A DNA stretch of 64,000 nucleotides from the NCBI GenBank assembly GCA_031278215.1, contig JAITKV010000029.1, positions 28,927-92,926 on the forward strand. The letters run 5' to 3'. Below are positions 29,441 to 36,589 of the stretch, piece by piece. The notes beneath the pieces are model-generated. The model was not told the origin of the DNA, made no database searches, and worked only from the letters and a program-made list of their open reading frames with translations. Each line of letters starts with the position of its first letter. Positions within the stretch are counted from its first letter, which is position 1. The position numbers and the translations under genes were made by a program. This stretch comes from Spirochaetaceae bacterium (GTDB taxonomy: Bacteria > Spirochaetota > Spirochaetia > Treponematales > Breznakiellaceae).

Positions 29441-29941
29441 ATGAAAAAAAAATCGTTGCGTAAACAATGTATTCCGGCGCTGCTTGCCTTGGCAGCATTG
29501 GCCGGATGCAAAAACCCCTCTTCGGGCACGGCTTCGGGCACGCCTGCGAGCGCGTCGTTTACTATTACCGGCGCCCCCGAGGGGCTCTTTTATTCGTTGT
29601 CGGTGTTCGACCAGGACGCCACCATCATGTACAATCCCAAAGCCTCCCTTACCCAGTTGACAGGATACCGGGCCCAGGGGATCGGGGCGGGGAATTCCAC
29701 CAGCTTTACAATCAAGGTTTCTTCCGAGATCTCCGCGGGAAACTATGTGCTGGTCCTGGGCGTTTCTACGGATATGTCAACCGGCAAGATGTACATTACC
29801 GGTAATCCGGGGTCTCCGGCAAAGCGTAAAGCAATTCCCGTTACCCCCGGGGGTACTATTGTATACGGCGCCGCCGGTTTCATCCCCAGCACCGGCGGTT
29901 ATACAGCCCATGAGATTGTTGACCTTTTTGGCACGCCCTAG
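29441..29941 (+). CDS. Lipoprotein, tandem copy 1
   Basis: A 166-residue lipoprotein: signal ending in ALAALAGC (Cys23), then a Ser/Thr/Gly-rich linker and a beta-sandwich-like domain (FTITGAPEGLFYSLSVF, STSFTIKVSSEISAGNYVLVLGVS, TGKMYITG). It closely matches the next gene along the length, so the two arose by duplication. Function unknown; surface or periplasmic. AGGAG ribosome site is shared. Confidence 0.85.
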   Translation: MKKKSLRKQCIPALLALAALAGCKNPSSGTASGTPASASFTITGAPEGLFYSLSVFDQDATIMYNPKASLTQLTGYRAQGIGAGNSTSFTIKVSSEISAGNYVLVLGVSTDMSTGKMYITGNPGSPAKRKAIPVTPGGTIVYGAAGFIPSTGGYTAHEIVDLFGTP

Positions 29942-30161: not shown

Positions 30162-30641
30162 ATGAAAAGAAAACCGTTGATTAAACAATGTATCCCGGCG
30201 CTGCTTGCCTTGGCGGCATTGGCCGGATGCGGAAACCCTTCTTCGAGCACGCCGAGCACGGAGCTTGTTATTACCGGCGCCCCCTCGGGGGCCTATTATT
30301 CGTTGTCGGTGTTCGCGGAAAACGCTACTATTAGTAACGATACGAATGGTCTGACCAAATTGGGAGGATACCTTGCCCAGGGGATCGGGGCGGGGAATTC
30401 CACCAGCTTTACAATCAAGGTTTCTCCCGAGATCTCCGCGGGAAACTATGTGCTGGTCCTGGGCGTTTCTAATGATATGTCAACCGGCAAGATGTATATT
30501 ACCGGTACTGATTCGCCGAAAGCGCGTAAAGCAATTGCCGTTACCCCCGGGGGTACTATTGCATACAACACCACCGACTTCACAAGCACCCCTTATGAAG
30601 CCTCTGTTATTGCTAGTGATTTCGGCACTCCCTCCCCTTAA
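30162..30641 (+). CDS. Lipoprotein, tandem copy 2
   Basis: A 159-residue paralogue of the gene at 29441. Nearly identical N terminus (KQCIPALLALAALAGC) and second half (AQGIGAGNSTSFTIKVSPEI). Differences cluster in the linker after the Cys and in residues 65-80 (ENATISNDTNGLTKLGG), and at the C-terminal tail. The unchanged beta-sandwich and altered surface segments suggest drift or selection on exposed parts. Function unknown. Confidence 0.85.
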   Translation: MKRKPLIKQCIPALLALAALAGCGNPSSSTPSTELVITGAPSGAYYSLSVFAENATISNDTNGLTKLGGYLAQGIGAGNSTSFTIKVSPEISAGNYVLVLGVSNDMSTGKMYITGTDSPKARKAIAVTPGGTIAYNTTDFTSTPYEASVIASDFGTPSP

Positions 30642-30696: not shown

Positions 30697-31476
30697 TTAG
30701 AAAAAGCGGTACCCCAGGGCCACCCGGAGTTCCGGTCCGTGGGTCAGGCCCGAGATCCGGGGGTTTCCAAAGAGGGTGGGCCGGGAAATGCCGAAGCGGT
30801 TTTCCACATAGTCAATACCTTCCTGTTCCGCGGAAGTTTTAAGCCGAAAGCGGTACACCAGCTCGGCCCGCAGAAAAAAGGGGCTCTTAATCATAAAATC
30901 CAGCCCCGCCCCCGCGTCCACCAAGAACGAATTCCACATGGAAAGGGAGAAGTTCCGGGAACCGTCCAGTTCCGTCTTTCCATCGGCCCTGGGCTGATCT
31001 TTTTCCCCGCGGGGCCTGCGTTTTTCGACCAGGGCAATTTGATACTCGATCCCCAGCAGGGGGTAGATTAAAAGCCCCCTCCGCAGGGTAAAGGGGTACT
31101 TGCCCACCAGGGTAAAGCCCAGCACGGTTTCCGCCCCGGTCCCTTCCAGGGGAATGTCGTTAAAATAGGTACCCTGCCCAATGCCCCCAAGGGTTTCCCG
31201 GTACCGGTTAAGGCCCCGCTGGATTTCCACGGTAAATTCCCCGTAGGTTGCGTCAAAGAAGAGGTAGCCCCCGTAATTAAACTGATCCATGGACTGCTTC
31301 ATTTCCAGGTCCGTCGGGCCGAATTTAGTGTTTTCGTCTGCGGTAAGGGTATAGCGGCTAAAAAGCCCCCCCGCCAAAAAACCGCCGCCGGCGCTTAAGG
31401 TAAACTCCGGCAGTTCCCCCATGACGGAAGAAGCCGGCCCCAGGGCCGCTAAAAAAAACAGGATGTATCTCTTCAA
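30697..31476 (-). CDS. Outer-membrane beta-barrel protein
   Basis: A 259-residue exported protein. TTG start at 31476 with a cleavable signal (MKRYILFFLAALGPASSVMG). Mature part alternates short hydrophobic strands and charged turns, and ends in LRVALGYRFF, the C-terminal aromatic signature used by the BAM machinery. Unrelated in sequence to the two large surface proteins downstream. A promoter lies 82-110 bases upstream. Confidence 0.8.
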   Translation of the reverse strand: MKRYILFFLAALGPASSVMGELPEFTLSAGGGFLAGGLFSRYTLTADENTKFGPTDLEMKQSMDQFNYGGYLFFDATYGEFTVEIQRGLNRYRETLGGIGQGTYFNDIPLEGTGAETVLGFTLVGKYPFTLRRGLLIYPLLGIEYQIALVEKRRPRGEKDQPRADGKTELDGSRNFSLSMWNSFLVDAGAGLDFMIKSPFFLRAELVYRFRLKTSAEQEGIDYVENRFGISRPTLFGNPRISGLTHGPELRVALGYRFF

Positions 31477-31586: not shown

Positions 31587-31847
31587 TGGAATTGTTCTAC
31601 AATCCGGCCGGCTGTTGTCGGGGCTGCGTTTAGCCTGCAAGCTGCCGGCAAGACGTTTCGGGGCGGCAGGATGATATAAGAGAAAAGAGTTTTACCACGG
31701 AGGGTCAACCCAAAAACCGGGACGGTTTAGCCCCCGTTTGATGGTGATTTCTCGTATATTTGCCGGACTGAACAGCGGCGTATTGTTTTCACGGGCTATA
31801 TACGGGAGCGCTTTTTCCGGCCCGTTCCGGCGGCGGCCGGTAGGTAC

Positions 31848-31881
31848 AAAAAAAGCCCGGCCGTCCAGGACCGCCGGGCTT
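31848..31881 (-). terminator. Terminator of left surface-protein copy
   Basis: Minus strand: AAGCCCGGC (31873-31881) pairs with GCCGGGCTT (31853-31861), then a run of T. It is nearly the same as the terminator after the right copy, so homology of the two genes extends past the stop codon. Confidence 0.85.
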
Positions 31882-31905
31882 GTACCGCGTTAGGCGGTTT
31901 TTGCT

Positions 31906-33066
31906 TTAGAAGCTCCACACAAAGTCTACATACACCTTCTGGGCAAGAATGGTGGGTGATACACTGTCGCTTGAAACCTTGCCCCATCCAAGATCATAGG
32001 CCGCCACAATCTTGGCGCCTTCCGCTATATTCCAGGTGATGCTGGGCTTGCCGCCGATATATATCAGGGTAACATCCTCACCATGCGCTGTTATATCCTC
32101 ACTGGCGCCGCCGTAGCCGCCGTAGACTTCAAGTTTGGGAACAAAGGTTCCCCCGGCCAGGGCATAGGAGGCCCAGATGTTCCCCTTAAGACCCAGGTTG
32201 AATTCCTTTGAAGTAGCAGGCGAAGGAAGATATCGAGTACCCGCCAACGGGCCGAAGTTGGGCAGGTTAATGAACTGCCAGAAGGTGGCGCCCACATCAA
32301 GGTCCCCAAGATCGTAGGAAACCACTTCGTCAATGGTAAAGCCCTTGTCTTCCGCATCCAGAGTCTTGCTCCAGATTTCCGCCGCCAGGGACAGGTTGGG
32401 AATGGCCGAAACTTCTACGCCCGCAAAGATGCTCCTCATAACCAGGTCCGAGGTTCTTCCGCTTATCACCACCTTAAACAGATCGGGGTAGGCATAGGCC
32501 GCGCCGTAGGTAAAGGTGTTGTTAAGAAGGCTGTCCTGTCCGCTGAAGCCGGCCGGGAGCCCGTCATATACCCCAAAGCCCACATTAAGGCCTTCGATGG
32601 GGCGGATCTGTACCAGGCCCCCCAGGCCTTCTCCCACGTCGTCGGCTTCATCGCCGGCGGTGGCCCACGCGCCGTTGTCTACCACGCCGCCGTAAATGTC
32701 GACGATGTTAAATACCGTGGCGCTGACATAGGCGTATTCAGCGTAGATAGAGGGCAATTCCTTTACAGTGTTGGTTTCGCCGCCCTGGGCCCGCAGCTTA
32801 ATATGGGCCCCGATGTTGTCGTAGGTAAAGTCGACGTTCAGGTCGGCCCGGGCAAGAGGCACATCCGCATCCTGGGCATAGGCGCCAAAATCCCAACTCG
32901 TTTCAGTATCGGAGCCGGAGACATCGGGATCAAGCGATTCAGCCGTTCCCTGAAGACCGGAATTCAAAGACCCGGAAATCTTGAGTTCCTGAGCAAATAC
33001 TCCCCCTGCTACCGCAAGGATCAAAAGAAGGTTTATTTCCGGCGAATTTCCGGGTGTTTTTTCCAC
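31906..33066 (-). CDS. Outer-membrane surface protein, left copy (start-less, predicted OFF)
   Basis: Very similar to the gene at 34019 and oriented away from it. From base 33029 inward it encodes LLLILAVAGGVFAQELKISG (the same signal peptide end) and about 370 residues of the same beta-barrel, ending VYVDFVWSF. Upstream of 33029 the homology stops abruptly: the ATG, first codons, ribosome site and promoter are missing. The only start candidate is a GTG at 33066, giving VEKTPGNSPEIN before the signal hydrophobic core and no ribosome site. It is thus predicted silent until the adjacent 1,008-bp segment inverts. Differences from the right copy cluster in five or six segments. The frame is intact and no stop is present. 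Confidence 0.85.
   Translation of the reverse strand: MEKTPGNSPEINLLLILAVAGGVFAQELKISGSLNSGLQGTAESLDPDVSGSDTETSWDFGAYAQDADVPLARADLNVDFTYDNIGAHIKLRAQGGETNTVKELPSIYAEYAYVSATVFNIVDIYGGVVDNGAWATAGDEADDVGEGLGGLVQIRPIEGLNVGFGVYDGLPAGFSGQDSLLNNTFTYGAAYAYPDLFKVVISGRTSDLVMRSIFAGVEVSAIPNLSLAAEIWSKTLDAEDKGFTIDEVVSYDLGDLDVGATFWQFINLPNFGPLAGTRYLPSPATSKEFNLGLKGNIWASYALAGGTFVPKLEVYGGYGGASEDITAHGEDVTLIYIGGKPSITWNIAEGAKIVAAYDLGWGKVSSDSVSPTILAQKVYVDFVWSF
32928..33029 (-). repeat. Inverted repeat, left arm (102 bp)
   Basis: Perfect 102-bp match, in inverted orientation, to 34038-34139. The repeat encodes the second half of the signal peptide and the start of the mature surface protein, so recombination anywhere in it keeps reading frame. 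The left edge of the match is at a C/T difference. Confidence 0.95.
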
Positions 33067-33094
33067 CGGATATACACATATTTTGCACAGATTA

Positions 33095-33718
33095 TCAACA
33101 GCCCTGGGGGGCTGAACACGGCGGATTTTGCAGCCGGGAATTGATGAAAATCCGGACCGTATTCCGGTTGGTTCCCAGACGGCGGCCAATTTCGGCTTTA
33201 GACAGGCCCTGGCTAAGCATGACTTTGATTTCTTCTTCGCGGCCGCTTAGTTTTAGGTGTTTCGATTTGCCGAAGGGTCTGCCAAGTTTTTGGCCTTCGG
33301 CCCGGCGGCGGGCCAGGGCTTCTTTGGTGCGCTGGCTGATAAGATTTCGCTCGATTTCCGCCGAAAGGCCGAAGGCAAAGGCTAAAACCTTAGATTGGAT
33401 GTCATTGCCCAGGCGGTAGCCGTCTTTTATGGTCCAAATTTCGGCGCCCATGTTCATACAATGGGAAAGAATCGACATAATCATAAAAAGACTGCGTCCA
33501 AGCCGGGAAAGTTCAGAGCAAATAATAAGGTCCCCCGGTTTAATGGCGTTTAAAAGGGTCCCCAAAAGGCGTTTTTCGGGAATTTTTGTTCCGCTGATGG
33601 TTTCTTCTATCCATTGGTCGATATAAATGTGGCTGGTTTGGCAAAAATGCCGTATTTCGAAGCGCTGGTTTTCCACGGTTTGCTTATCCGTACTTACCCG
33701 GATATACCCATAGGTCAT
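33095..33718 (-). CDS. Serine DNA invertase (Mpi-type)
   Basis: A 207-residue resolvase/invertase-family serine recombinase. The N terminus MTYGYIRVSTDKQTVENQRF has the catalytic Ser9, and ETISGTK, LIICSELSRLGRS and KVLAFAFGLSAEIERNLIS cover the rest of the catalytic domain (Arg residues in SELSRLGR and QRTKEALARRRAEGQ). The C terminus holds a helix-turn-helix (LSKAEIGRRLGTNRNTVRIFI). The pattern resembles the Bacteroides master invertase Mpi from memory. Start at ATG 33718, preceded by GGAGG. It lies inside the segment it would invert, and its stop is 66 bases before the left repeat, reading toward the OFF copy. Confidence 0.9.
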   Translation of the reverse strand: MTYGYIRVSTDKQTVENQRFEIRHFCQTSHIYIDQWIEETISGTKIPEKRLLGTLLNAIKPGDLIICSELSRLGRSLFMIMSILSHCMNMGAEIWTIKDGYRLGNDIQSKVLAFAFGLSAEIERNLISQRTKEALARRRAEGQKLGRPFGKSKHLKLSGREEEIKVMLSQGLSKAEIGRRLGTNRNTVRIFINSRLQNPPCSAPQGC

Positions 33719-33802
33719 AAGGTCCTCCAAAGTGAATGATTGTATTCCGCAGGGAATAGTTGAATTTGGACCCCGGAATTTGGTTTTATGGCATAAGCGG
33801 CG

Positions 33803-33816
33803 CCCCATATATGGGG
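33803..33816. promoter_or_regulatory. 14-bp palindrome CCCCATATATGGGG
   Basis: Perfect palindrome in the invertase upstream region, 85-98 bases before its ATG and between the invertase and the surface-gene promoter. Candidate binding site for a dimeric regulator or accessory factor. No direct proof. Confidence 0.4.
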
Positions 33817-33917
33817 GCAAAAATTGCTAAAACAACCCTATTTTTCGGACAAAAAATAAAAATTCGGCAAAATTTAACTTTTTTTTATAAAAATTCTTAA
33901 AAATTAATAACAACGGC

Positions 33918-34018
33918 TTGACAAAATTAAAACTTATTGTGTACCCTAAGAAAGATAAAGAGGTGTCAGGTGATCGTTGATTACTTCCTCTTGTCAATCC
34001 TAGGAGGATTAGTAAGTT
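33918..34018 (+). promoter_or_regulatory. Surface-gene promoter and leader
   Basis: TTGACA at 33918-33923 behind long A/T tracts; the -10 is weak (TACCCT, 33942-33947, 18-base spacer). The 5' leader of about 65 bases ends in AATCCT-AGG-AGGATT (33996-34010), a hairpin that overlaps the AGGAGG ribosome site, 8 bases before ATG 34019. Confidence 0.65.
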
Positions 34019-35170
34019 ATGAAGAAAACGTTAATTGTTCTTTTGATCCTTGCGGTAGCAGGGGGAGTATTTGCTCAGGAACTCAAGATTTCCGGGTCTT
34101 TGAATTCCGGTCTTCAGGGAACGGCTGAATCGCTTGATCTCGATGCCCCCGGCACCGATACTCTAGAGGGCTGGAGTTTTGACGCCTATGCCCAGGATGC
34201 GGATGTGCCTTATGCCCGGGCCGACCTGAACGTCGACTTTACCTACGACAACATCGGGGCCCATATTAAGCTGCGGGCCCAGGGCGGCGAAACCGGTGTA
34301 AAGGGATTGCCCTCTATCTACGCTGAATACGCCTATGTCAGCGCCACGGTATTTAACATCGTTGACATTTACGGCGGCGCGGTAGACAACGGCGCGTGGG
34401 CCACCGCCGGCGATAAAGCCGACGACGTGGGAGAAGGCCTGGGGGGCCTGGTACAGATCCGCCCCATCGAAGGCCTTAATGTGGGCTTTGGGGTATATGA
34501 CGACCTCCCGGGCGACTTCGACCGCACCGGAATGGACAGCCTTCTTAACAACACCTTTACCTACGGCGCGGCCTATGCCTACCCCGATCTGTTTAAGGTG
34601 GTGGTAAGCGGAAGAACCTCGAACCTGGTTATGCGCAAGATCTTTGCGGGCGTAGAAGTTTCGGCCATTCCCAACCTGTCCCTGGCGGCGGAAATCTGGA
34701 GCGAGACCCTGGATGCGGAAGACAAGGGCTTTACCATTGACGAAGTGGTTTCCTACGATCTTGGGGACCTTGACGTGGGCGCCACCTTCTGGCAGTTCAT
34801 TAACCTGCTCAACTCCGGCCCGTTCGGCGACGTGGCGAAGCTGTACACAGGAATGACGTTTGGTGAGACTTCAAAGGAGTACGACCTGGGTCTTAAGGGA
34901 AACATCTGGGCCTCCTATGCCCTGGCCGGGGGAACCTTTGTTCCCAAACTTGAAGTTTACGTCGGCTACGGCGGCATTAGCAAAAAACTAGTGCCCGAGG
35001 ATTCAACCATCTTCTATATCGGCGGCAAGCCCAGCATCACCTGGAATATAGCGGAAGGCGCCAAGATTGTGGCGGCCTATGACCTCGGATGGGGCAAGGT
35101 TTCAGCCGACAGTGTAACGCCCACCATTGTTGCCCAGAAGGTGTATGTAGACTTTGTGTGGAGCTTCTAA
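34019..35170 (+). CDS. Outer-membrane surface protein, right copy (predicted ON)
   Basis: A 383-residue exported protein. Signal peptide MKKTLIVLLILAVAGGVFAQ, then a large beta-barrel (ELKISGSLNSG, ADLNVDFTYDNIGAHIKLRAQGGE, NIVDIYGGAVDNGAWA, LGGLVQIRPIEGLNVGFGVYDD, and C-terminal VYVDFVWSF with final Phe). It resembles treponemal porin-like or surface-antigen repeats in style, though I cannot place it in a named family. Relative to the left copy, constant strands alternate with variable blocks (after GTAESLD, after GVYD, at INLLN...TSKE, and GYGGISKK). Driven by the promoter at 33918 inside the invertible segment. Terminator at 35197. Confidence 0.9.
   Translation: MKKTLIVLLILAVAGGVFAQELKISGSLNSGLQGTAESLDLDAPGTDTLEGWSFDAYAQDADVPYARADLNVDFTYDNIGAHIKLRAQGGETGVKGLPSIYAEYAYVSATVFNIVDIYGGAVDNGAWATAGDKADDVGEGLGGLVQIRPIEGLNVGFGVYDDLPGDFDRTGMDSLLNNTFTYGAAYAYPDLFKVVVSGRTSNLVMRKIFAGVEVSAIPNLSLAAEIWSETLDAEDKGFTIDEVVSYDLGDLDVGATFWQFINLLNSGPFGDVAKLYTGMTFGETSKEYDLGLKGNIWASYALAGGTFVPKLEVYVGYGGISKKLVPEDSTIFYIGGKPSITWNIAEGAKIVAAYDLGWGKVSADSVTPTIVAQKVYVDFVWSF
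34038..34139 (+). repeat. Inverted repeat, right arm (102 bp)
   Basis: Perfect inverted match of 32928-33029. Starts after the sixth codon of the surface gene and ends at the first C/T difference from the left copy. Candidate crossover site for the invertase. Confidence 0.95.
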
Positions 35171-35196
35171 AGCAAAAACCGCCTAACGCGCGGTAC

Positions 35197-35233
35197 AAGC
35201 CCGGCGGTCCTCTGGACGGCCGGGCTTTTTTTT
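35197..35233 (+). terminator. Rho-independent terminator of right surface gene
   Basis: AAGCCCGGC (35197-35205) and GCCGGGCTT (35219-35227), 9-bp perfect stem, 13-base loop, followed by 7-8 T. Homologous to the terminator after the left copy. Confidence 0.92.
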
Positions 35234-35284
35234 CGATACAGGAACGGCGCGAATAACCACGAACGGCGCAAAGGGAAAAGGCTG

Positions 35285-36589
35285 TTAAAGCAGGGTTTCG
35301 CGCGGCTCCGGATCGGGCACGGTAACACAGCCGTCCGGCAGAATAAGGATTTTCGGCCTAAAGTTACCCGCGGCCAGGGCTTTGGCCAGGGCCTTGTCCA
35401 GGGCTTGTTGGGGGCTTTCGGATTTTTCTATAAACATAGAGGCAAGCCGTTCCGCAGGCAGTTCCGACACCGCCATGATTCCCGCCCTGCCGGAGACTTC
35501 CGCCATTTTTGCGGCCTTGTGGTACCCCAGCTTGTAGCCCCCCCGGATCCGCTCTATGGCTTCCGCGGGAGAAGCCGAGGCCGCCAGCAATGCGGCGTAG
35601 GCCTCGTCCCCGATTCCGTCCCGGCAGCTCGAAACCAAAATAAGGGTTCCGCCGTCTTTAAGGGCGAGGGCGCCGTTGTCGATGGCTTTCTGGGACTGGT
35701 ACAGATCTATATCCATGGGGAACTTCGCGACGGAAACGACAATATCGGCCCTGGAAGGAACGGCTACGCAGAAAATTTTCCGGGCAATGTCCGTTGCGCT
35801 GTAAAACGAAGCCATTAGATCTCCGGCGCTAACGGCGGCCACTCCCTGTTCCCTGTCCAGAACCGTCATCACCGAAAACACCGGGGCCTTGATAAGGGGA
35901 AGGGCGTCCATCATGTCTTCGTGTACCGGGTTTCCTTCCAGGGCCAGGGAGCGGGCCCGGGGGGAAAGGGCCAGCTTGTGGTTTGCCTGGATGGTTTTGT
36001 ACGAGGCAATGCCGGGAAGAAAGGCTTTGCGTCCGCCGGTAAAGCCCGCAAAATAATGGGGCTCCACGCTGCCGGTGGCGATAATCCGGTCCGCCGCGAA
36101 AAGCTGCCGGTTAAGCAGCATGGGCGTACCGTTCCGGGTGGTTCCGATGTCAACCATGTCCTGTTCATTCCGGGCGTCGTGATAAAGGCACCGGGAACGA
36201 AGCCGGGGGTACAGATTCCCCAGAATCTGCCTGTACTCTTCTTCGGTGGGGCCCCGGTGCGCGCCGGTGGCCGTTAACAGGGTAAGGCCGCCGTCCGGAA
36301 CGCCCGCCTGTTCTATAAGCGGTAAAAGCCCTTCCAGGATCAGCGCCGTGGGGGTGGGCCGTGTGGCGTCGTTGATAATAATAAGAACCCTGCTTCCTCC
36401 GTAAAGAAAGCGTCCAAGCCCCTCCCCCTCCCCGCCGGCGGGCCCGCAGGGTTTTGCCAGCGCCGCGGCGAGTAGTTCTTTCGCCGAACCCTTCGCGGTG
36501 TATTCATTTGGTTCCGCAACGGCCAAAAGGTTTTCATCGGGGAATTCCAGGGGCAGGGTTTTATCCAGATAGGGCAGCACTATGTTCAT
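35285..36589 (-). CDS. LarA-family (DUF2088) nickel-dependent racemase-like
   Basis: A 434-residue LarA-like protein. The N-terminal domain has NDATRPTP and a TGAHRGPTEEE segment; the cofactor and catalytic region is VEPHYFAGFTGGRKAFLPG with the conserved His and Lys of the nickel-pincer pyridinium cofactor site, then ANHKLAL. LarA interconverts L- and D-lactate; relatives act on other 2-hydroxy acids. No LarB/C/E cofactor genes lie nearby, so the substrate and activity are open. Confidence 0.85.
   Translation of the reverse strand: MNIVLPYLDKTLPLEFPDENLLAVAEPNEYTAKGSAKELLAAALAKPCGPAGGEGEGLGRFLYGGSRVLIIINDATRPTPTALILEGLLPLIEQAGVPDGGLTLLTATGAHRGPTEEEYRQILGNLYPRLRSRCLYHDARNEQDMVDIGTTRNGTPMLLNRQLFAADRIIATGSVEPHYFAGFTGGRKAFLPGIASYKTIQANHKLALSPRARSLALEGNPVHEDMMDALPLIKAPVFSVMTVLDREQGVAAVSAGDLMASFYSATDIARKIFCVAVPSRADIVVSVAKFPMDIDLYQSQKAIDNGALALKDGGTLILVSSCRDGIGDEAYAALLAASASPAEAIERIRGGYKLGYHKAAKMAEVSGRAGIMAVSELPAERLASMFIEKSESPQQALDKALAKALAAGNFRPKILILPDGCVTVPDPEPRETLL

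What the first reader, a model, noticed from the sequence alone, without database searches (positions are those of the whole stretch)
31848..35233. Self-contained invertible switch that alternates two surface-protein genes
Seen: two highly similar outer-membrane protein genes in divergent orientation share a perfect 102-bp inverted repeat (32928-33029 and 34038-34139). Their similarity ends exactly at those edges. Between them, 1,008 bp hold a serine invertase and one promoter, ribosome site and start codon that feed only the right gene; the left gene has no start. Known: serine invertases flip promoter segments to switch surface structures (Hin, Mpi). Inference: inversion moves promoter, ATG and first codons, in frame, to the left gene. 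The switch unit carries its own invertase and its own start codon, which I have not seen described for this kind of bacterium.
Basis: partly seen in the sequence, partly recalled or inferred. Interest (0 to 1): 0.95.

Follow-up and report, generated by a model that had tools for sequence, protein, structure and literature searches.

The report
Flipping start-codon switch between porin genes
In this spirochete genome, two very similar genes for predicted outer-membrane barrel proteins point away from a 1-kb DNA segment that carries a gene of a DNA-flipping enzyme family together with a likely promoter, a ribosome-binding site and the only ATG start ahead of either gene; the enzyme is predicted to flip the segment, so that the cell would make one surface variant or the other.

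Summary
Two outer-membrane-type genes (84-86% aa identity) lie head to head around a 1,008-bp segment holding an Mpi-family serine invertase, a likely promoter, a hairpin leader, SD, ATG and six codons. Only the right gene has that start; inverted in silico, the left gene reads as an intact 380-aa protein. Correction: the 102-bp repeat is not the site. Both genes and terminators form the inverted repeat (92%); what matters is its inner edge, a TT in codon 7. A site matrix from two other genomes ranks the edges 3rd and 5th of 63,982 positions (permuted matrices do so in 2 of 3000). Start-less relatives break at the same TT in two other genomes. All four coding indels are in frame; differences lie mostly in predicted loops. 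Related switches recur in the order: L175 has the same topology with non-orthologous barrel-type genes but breaks at the SD, so there the ATG stays put. Inversion was not observed (no reads). Known analogues move a promoter alone (Mpi) or promoter plus gene start (M. pulmonis vsa). A new variant of a known kind.

The parts
31848..31889 (-). Hairpin and T-run at the end of the left cassette (terminator-like); outer limit of the repeat
31906..33030 (-). Left outer-membrane-type gene from codon 7 to stop: open frame (374 codons), no ATG and no SD ahead of it in the present orientation
   Evidence: gene-caller version P0122
33020..33037 (-). Left predicted crossover site, read on minus AATAAACC-TT-CTTTTGAT; centre TT at 33029-33028
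33030..34037 (.). 1,008-bp segment predicted to invert
33095..33718 (-). Mpi-family serine invertase, 207 aa: PF00239 plus HTH, Ser9 and SRLGRS present
33918..33947 (+). Likely promoter: TTGACA, 18 nt, TACCCT
   Evidence: comparison with relatives; not flagged by the consensus scan
33954..33995 (+). Conserved leader hairpin (17 pairs, 7 with a change on both sides in 10 sequences)
34002..34007 (+). Shine-Dalgarno AGGAGG
34019..34036 (+). ATG and first six codons (MKKTLI), inside the segment
34030..34047 (+). Right predicted crossover site GTTAATTG-TT-CTTTTGAT; centre TT at 34038-34039
34019..35170 (+). Right outer-membrane-type gene, 383 aa: signal-peptide-like start plus predicted barrel (19 strands in the model)
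35189..35232 (+). Hairpin and T-run at the end of the right cassette (terminator-like); outer limit of the repeat

Best explanation
This is likely a two-state DNA-inversion switch: an Mpi-family serine invertase encoded inside a 1,008-bp segment is predicted to recombine two short sites whose central TT is the exact inner edge of the inverted repeat, and this would move the likely promoter, hairpin leader, SD, ATG and first six codons from one outer-membrane-type gene to the other. Shown by sequence: the layout, the single ATG start, two open gene bodies, the edge in codon 7, and that in-silico inversion joins MKKTLIV in frame to the left gene (380 aa) and takes the start from the right gene. 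Inferred: that the invertase acts at these sites, that the promoter works, and that both states occur in cells. In each state one gene would be made and the other would lie promoter- and start-less downstream of the invertase. The two copies differ mostly in predicted long loops, so the likely gain is a change of exposed surface.
For: Layout and edge. In-silico inversion. Invertase: NF009949 'master DNA invertase Mpi family', 303 bits against a cut-off of 272, PF00239, catalytic residues present. Site: a matrix from the intergenic repeats flanking two related invertases (L086, L098) ranks the left and right edges 3 and 5 of 63,982, offset 0 being the best of 110 paired offsets; 2 of 3000 permuted matrices do as well. 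Of 60 further invertase loci fetched, 16 have an inverted repeat of 16 bp or more within 3 kb; in 8 of those 16 the same matrix has the best hit of the fetched stretch in at least one arm, against a mean of 0.35 and a maximum of 3 for 300 permuted matrices. Same TT break in start-less copies of G001 and G101. Frame kept: all 4 coding indels are multiples of 3, the two 2-nt gaps lie beyond the stop codon. Differences, insertions counted: 43 at 142 loop and 16 at 221 strand positions. Recurrence: L175, L197, L208 pair a promoter-bearing and a promoter-less barrel-type gene at an edge on the SD; the promoter-less edges rank 4, 1 and 1 with the same matrix.
Against: No reads, so neither state was counted. 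G001, G002 and G101 show no PF00239 gene in their assemblies (68-82% complete), so the start-less cassettes of G001 and G101 cannot be tied to an invertase. The two edges share one half-site, so their ranks are not independent; with 10-nt half-sites the right and left edges rank 27 and 52, with 12-nt 22 and 238, and with six methylase-locus half-sites added to the 8-nt matrix 48 and 14. The centre was chosen after seeing the window. The matrix gave no clear site in a Prevotella relative; the promoter-side edges of L175, L197, L208 rank only 171, 51, 50. Both arms within rank 12 in 5 of 16 loci is reached by 12 of 300 permuted matrices. 44 of 60 relatives show no such local repeat. Poor -10 box. 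The left copy might be read from GTG 33066.
Confidence: 0.85

Rival explanations
1. Frozen switch or bystander: an inverted duplication with an invertase between, no longer flipping; the left copy is a silent remnant or a gene-conversion donor.
For: Only one state seen; dN/dS 0.85 between copies is compatible with weak constraint; no invertase found in the assemblies of relatives that hold start-less copies.
Against: Invertase frame and catalytic residues intact; left cassette without stop or frameshift over 374 codons, 4 of 4 coding indels in frame; differences enriched in predicted loops.
Confidence: 0.1
2. The segment inverts by ordinary homologous recombination in the long repeat, not by the invertase.
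For: About 1.2 kb of 92% inverted repeat is ample for it.
Against: Edge at one dinucleotide here and, on contigs where no second copy was found, in two other genomes; site motif at the edge.
Confidence: 0.03
3. Both genes are always expressed: the right from its promoter, the left from the invertase transcript through GTG 33066.
For: Left gene is co-directional with and about 65 bp downstream of the invertase; in-frame GTG used by a gene caller.
Against: No SD at the GTG and acidic residues before the signal core (by eye); the G001 and G101 cassettes have in-frame stops 20 and 4 codons upstream with no ATG between, nor GTG or TTG by eye.
Confidence: 0.02

Closest known systems
Mpi of Bacteroides fragilis (promoter inversions; PMC4747536, passages read)
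   Same: Same invertase family by NCBIfam model; inverted segments carry promoters of surface genes.
   Different: Mpi is reported to invert 13 regions, seven of them polysaccharide promoters; here the invertase lies inside its likely target and the ATG and first codons move too.
Mycoplasma pulmonis vsa and Ureaplasma UU172/mba (PMC3047005, passages read)
   Different: Different bacteria and proteins; recalled: the vsa recombinase is a tyrosine recombinase. Here a serine invertase inside the segment.
Dichelobacter nodosus omp1 (Moses 1995; only its title in a reference list seen; paper not held; details recalled)
   Same: Outer-membrane protein genes switched by site-specific inversion.
   Different: Multi-gene system (recalled); invertase and site could not be compared.
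Salmonella Hin / H segment (recalled)
   Same: About 1-kb segment carrying its own serine invertase and a promoter.
   Different: Hin moves a promoter only and switches flagellin through a repressor.
   Same: Mpi-type invertase beside or between paired barrel-type genes, one with promoter and leader, one without; L175 has the window's topology.
   Different: Edge at the SD, so the ATG stays with each gene; L175 protein shows no clear similarity to the window's.

Membership tests
Mpi-family serine invertase (NF009949) | Profile score above curated cut-off | tested here: met
   303 bits, cut-off 272
Mpi-family serine invertase (NF009949) | Catalytic serine and arginine motif intact | tested here: met
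   Ser9 and SRLGRS align with PDB DNA-invertase chains; that these are Gin and the residues' role are recalled
Mpi-family serine invertase (NF009949) | Sites of the type AAACG-NN-CGTTT at inverted repeats (motif derived here) | tested here: inconclusive
   Edges rank 3 and 5 in the window; 8 of 16 repeat-bearing relatives in at least one arm, permuted maximum 3; not in Prevotella; 44 of 60 relatives without local repeat
Mpi-family serine invertase (NF009949) | Inverts DNA | not testable with these tools
   no reads, no bench
Invertible-promoter phase switch | Inverted sites bound a segment with an outward promoter facing one of two genes | tested here: met
   promoter by comparison only
Invertible-promoter phase switch | Both orientations present in a population | not testable with these tools
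   assembled contig only
vsa-type switch (gene start moved) | Promoter, RBS and 5' codons moved in frame to a start-less body | tested here: met
   layout, and in silico
vsa-type switch (gene start moved) | Tyrosine recombinase (recalled) | tested here: not met
   serine family; hence an analogue, not a member
Hin-type invertase system | Fis-bound enhancer (recalled) | not tested
   -

The most novel reading that the evidence does not exclude
Spirochetes of this order use a so far undescribed class of surface switch in which an Mpi-family invertase shuttles a promoter-plus-leader-RNA module between porin-like genes; in this lineage the crossover site lies inside the signal peptide, so the start codon itself is mobile and start-less cassettes can be stored elsewhere in the genome (as in G001 and G101) as an archive of surface variants.
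Probability: 0.45. Interest if true: 0.75.

Novelty: new variant of a known kind. Interest (0 to 1): 0.62.

Why it matters
If it flips, it gives these treponeme relatives a heritable either/or choice of an outer-membrane protein, a route to surface variation that my literature searches did not list for spirochetes. It supplies a testable site motif, a set of loci in which to count orientations, and an explanation for gene callers mis-starting surface genes (P0122; perhaps P0126).

Tried and rejected
The 102-bp repeat as the recombination site: rejected, as the repeat continues over 1.2 kb and other perfect runs are 87 and 82 bp. Conservation of the signal-peptide DNA as evidence of a site: rejected, because the same core occurs in outer-membrane-type genes with normal starts across the family (16 of 19 such rows; 3 of its 22 rows were chance hits and were dropped). 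A first motif guess (ACCTT near invertases) was too loose and was replaced by the half-site matrix; its centre and the 8-nt length were chosen after looking at the window, hence the permutation controls. L075's repeat looked like an intergenic palindrome and was not used. Mobile-element origin: no record in the phage or plasmid collections covers 80% of the unit; only the invertase part matched, at 67-78% identity. Hoped-for invertase in G001, G002, G101: none found. A strict scan for paired SD+ATG starts found 2 of 99 oriented loci (L175, L197); L208 and L155 were seen only through their repeats, and L155's right side looks like a rearranged remnant (by eye). An earlier count said 18 of 60 loci have repeats; searches give 16.
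Full report
What is there. The window lies in a 2.1-Mb, 62-contig draft genome, 80% complete. A contig of a same-genus genome has the length and match of a public record titled Spirochaetaceae bacterium, and the best-scoring hit with an organism name is from Treponema primitia ZAS-2 (P0129). Two outer-membrane-type genes lie head to head around 1,008 bp. The proteins are 84-86% identical; the DNA repeat covers both gene bodies and both terminator-like hairpins, 1077 of 1173 ungapped columns identical. Inward, identity stops at one base: 5 of 20 bases match beyond it. The edge is a TT that forms the second and third bases of codon 7.

The segment. On the minus strand it holds an intact 207-aa serine recombinase: PF00239, NF009949 'master DNA invertase Mpi family' at 303 bits against a cut-off of 272, Ser9 and SRLGRS aligned with solved DNA invertases. 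Towards the right gene lie TTGACA-18-TACCCT, a hairpin leader, AGGAGG and ATG plus six codons. The -10 is weak and the scan did not flag it; two relatives have TATACT at the same place. The leader folds alike in 10 genes of this family: 17 pairs, 7 with a change on both sides that keeps the pair (10 of the 11 family leaders).

What inversion would do. Inverting 33030-34037 in silico joins MKKTLIV in frame to the left body, giving a 380-aa protein without internal stop, and puts the right body behind the former left junction without ATG or SD. In the present state the left body has no ATG or SD; a GTG 12 codons upstream is in frame and a gene caller used it.

Is the edge a site? Two related invertases in other genomes are flanked by short intergenic repeats (L086, L098). 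A matrix from their 8-nt half-sites alone ranks the window's left and right edges 3 and 5 of 63,982 positions, and offset 0 is the best of 110 paired offsets. Of 3000 permuted matrices 2 do as well. Limits: the edges share one half-site; with 10-nt half-sites right and left rank 27 and 52, with 12-nt 22 and 238, and with six methylase-locus half-sites added 48 and 14; I fixed the centre after seeing the window. As a fresh test I fetched 60 invertase loci from the list (111 of 390 genomes had a match at E <= 1e-40): 16 have a repeat of 16 bp or more within 3 kb, and in 8 of these (L156, L158, L161, L165, L173, L197, L198, L208) the matrix puts the best hit of the stretch in at least one arm; in L156 and L158 in both. 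For 300 permuted matrices that number has mean 0.35 and maximum 3. The weaker criterion, both arms within rank 12, gives 5 of 16 and is reached by 12 of 300 permuted matrices. A Prevotella relative gave no clear site, and 44 of the 60 loci have no such repeat.

Same break elsewhere. Among 19 signal-peptide cores of this gene type in the loci then held, 16 have an ATG start and 3 do not: the window's left gene, G001 and G101. All three break at the same TT, preceded by CC, into unrelated DNA; G001 and G101 have in-frame stops 20 and 4 codons upstream. G001, G002 and G101 show no PF00239 gene in their assemblies, so the link to an invertase there is open.

Is the left copy kept for use? Both bodies are open; all four coding indels are multiples of 3, while both 2-nt gaps lie beyond the stop codon. 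dN/dS is 0.85, which alone would also fit weak constraint. The predicted structure (13-sequence alignment, mean pLDDT 81, pTM 0.74) has 19 strands; the best PDB match is Campylobacter jejuni MOMP, 5ldt, E 6.8e-11, TM 0.59. Differences, insertions counted, number 43 at 142 loop and 16 at 221 strand positions (Fisher p 1.1e-8). From the third turn on they alternate: odd-numbered turns 3 to 17 have none, even-numbered 4 to 18 have 38. That the variable side is the outside is inferred from barrel topology.

Recurrence. Invertase relatives at E <= 1e-40 occur in 31 of 195 family genomes, at E <= 0.001 in 42, some of these partial or only HTH-like. In another family of the order, L175 has the window's topology: the invertase lies between divergent genes of 425 and 381 aa (37% identical over 180 aa), 1,023 bp between the ATGs, promoter and hairpin leader on one side only; homology starts at GGAGG of the SD. 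L197 and L208 show the same edge at GGAGG, with the gene bodies inside the segment that would flip. The promoter-less edges of L175, L197, L208 rank 4, 1 and 1 with the same matrix, the promoter-side edges 171, 51 and 50. The L175 and L197 proteins have no Pfam match, and L175's is no clear relative of the window's (E 0.02 over 22 residues). So the window's own peculiarity is that the site sits in the signal peptide and the ATG moves.

Known systems. Promoter inversion by Mpi (PMC4747536, passages) and placement of promoter, RBS and gene start before silent bodies in M. pulmonis vsa (PMC3047005, passages) cover the two halves of the idea; D. nodosus omp1 is close but unread. PMC5903667 (passages) reports inversion signatures in 1 of 8 spirochaete species; the genus names I searched in it (Treponema, Brachyspira, Sphaerochaeta, Leptospira, Spirochaeta, Borrelia) do not occur in its main text. 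Searches listed no description of a spirochete outer-membrane switch of this kind in the held library (listings seen, not every paper opened); most subscription papers are not held.

Verdict. Layout shown; mechanism likely (0.85); inversion itself unobserved. New variant of a known kind.

Noticed in passing
window 33954-33995; L070, L071, L130, L135, L137-L140, L142: Conserved hairpin leader of outer-membrane-type genes: 17 pairs, 7 with a change on both sides in 10 sequences; Rfam search of 31700-35400 gave one weak hit elsewhere. The f3 leaders (L175, L155, L197, L208) also fold into a hairpin with a GTT loop closed by C-G.
   Followed up: partly
L007:1502; L131 (G101 C1, about 1270, minus strand): Start-less cassettes in two other genomes, the second directly after the stop codon of an upstream gene.
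   Followed up: partly
L081, L084, L090, L092, L103: Contigs end inside the signal-peptide-like start of a gene divergent from an Mpi-type invertase, with a TTTAAA(A)GG-G site-like sequence between: perhaps assembly breaks at switching genes.
   Followed up: partly
L087, L091, L093, L187, L198; L146: Related invertases near inverted repeats in methylase-type genes (RPILRGRDI or NPPY-type motifs, names recalled; L146 annotated Eco57I-type).
   Followed up: partly
L086, L098: Invertase alone between two 26-bp repeats, next to a lipoprotein-like gene or a contig end; promoter-like sequence near one end by eye.
   Followed up: partly
L141:6469: Outer-membrane-type gene copy in G185 with ATG but without the SD that its sister copy has.
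   Followed up: no
L134:42-105 and 2654-2591: Two identical leader-plus-start modules in inverted orientation about 2.5 kb apart in G020.
   Followed up: no
window 30697-31476: Neighbouring gene with a weak match to NF049866, TDE1717 family outer membrane barrel (52 bits, cut-off 135).
   Followed up: no
window 29441-29941 and 30162-30641: Tandem pair of similar small lipoprotein-like genes (166 and 159 aa).
   Followed up: no
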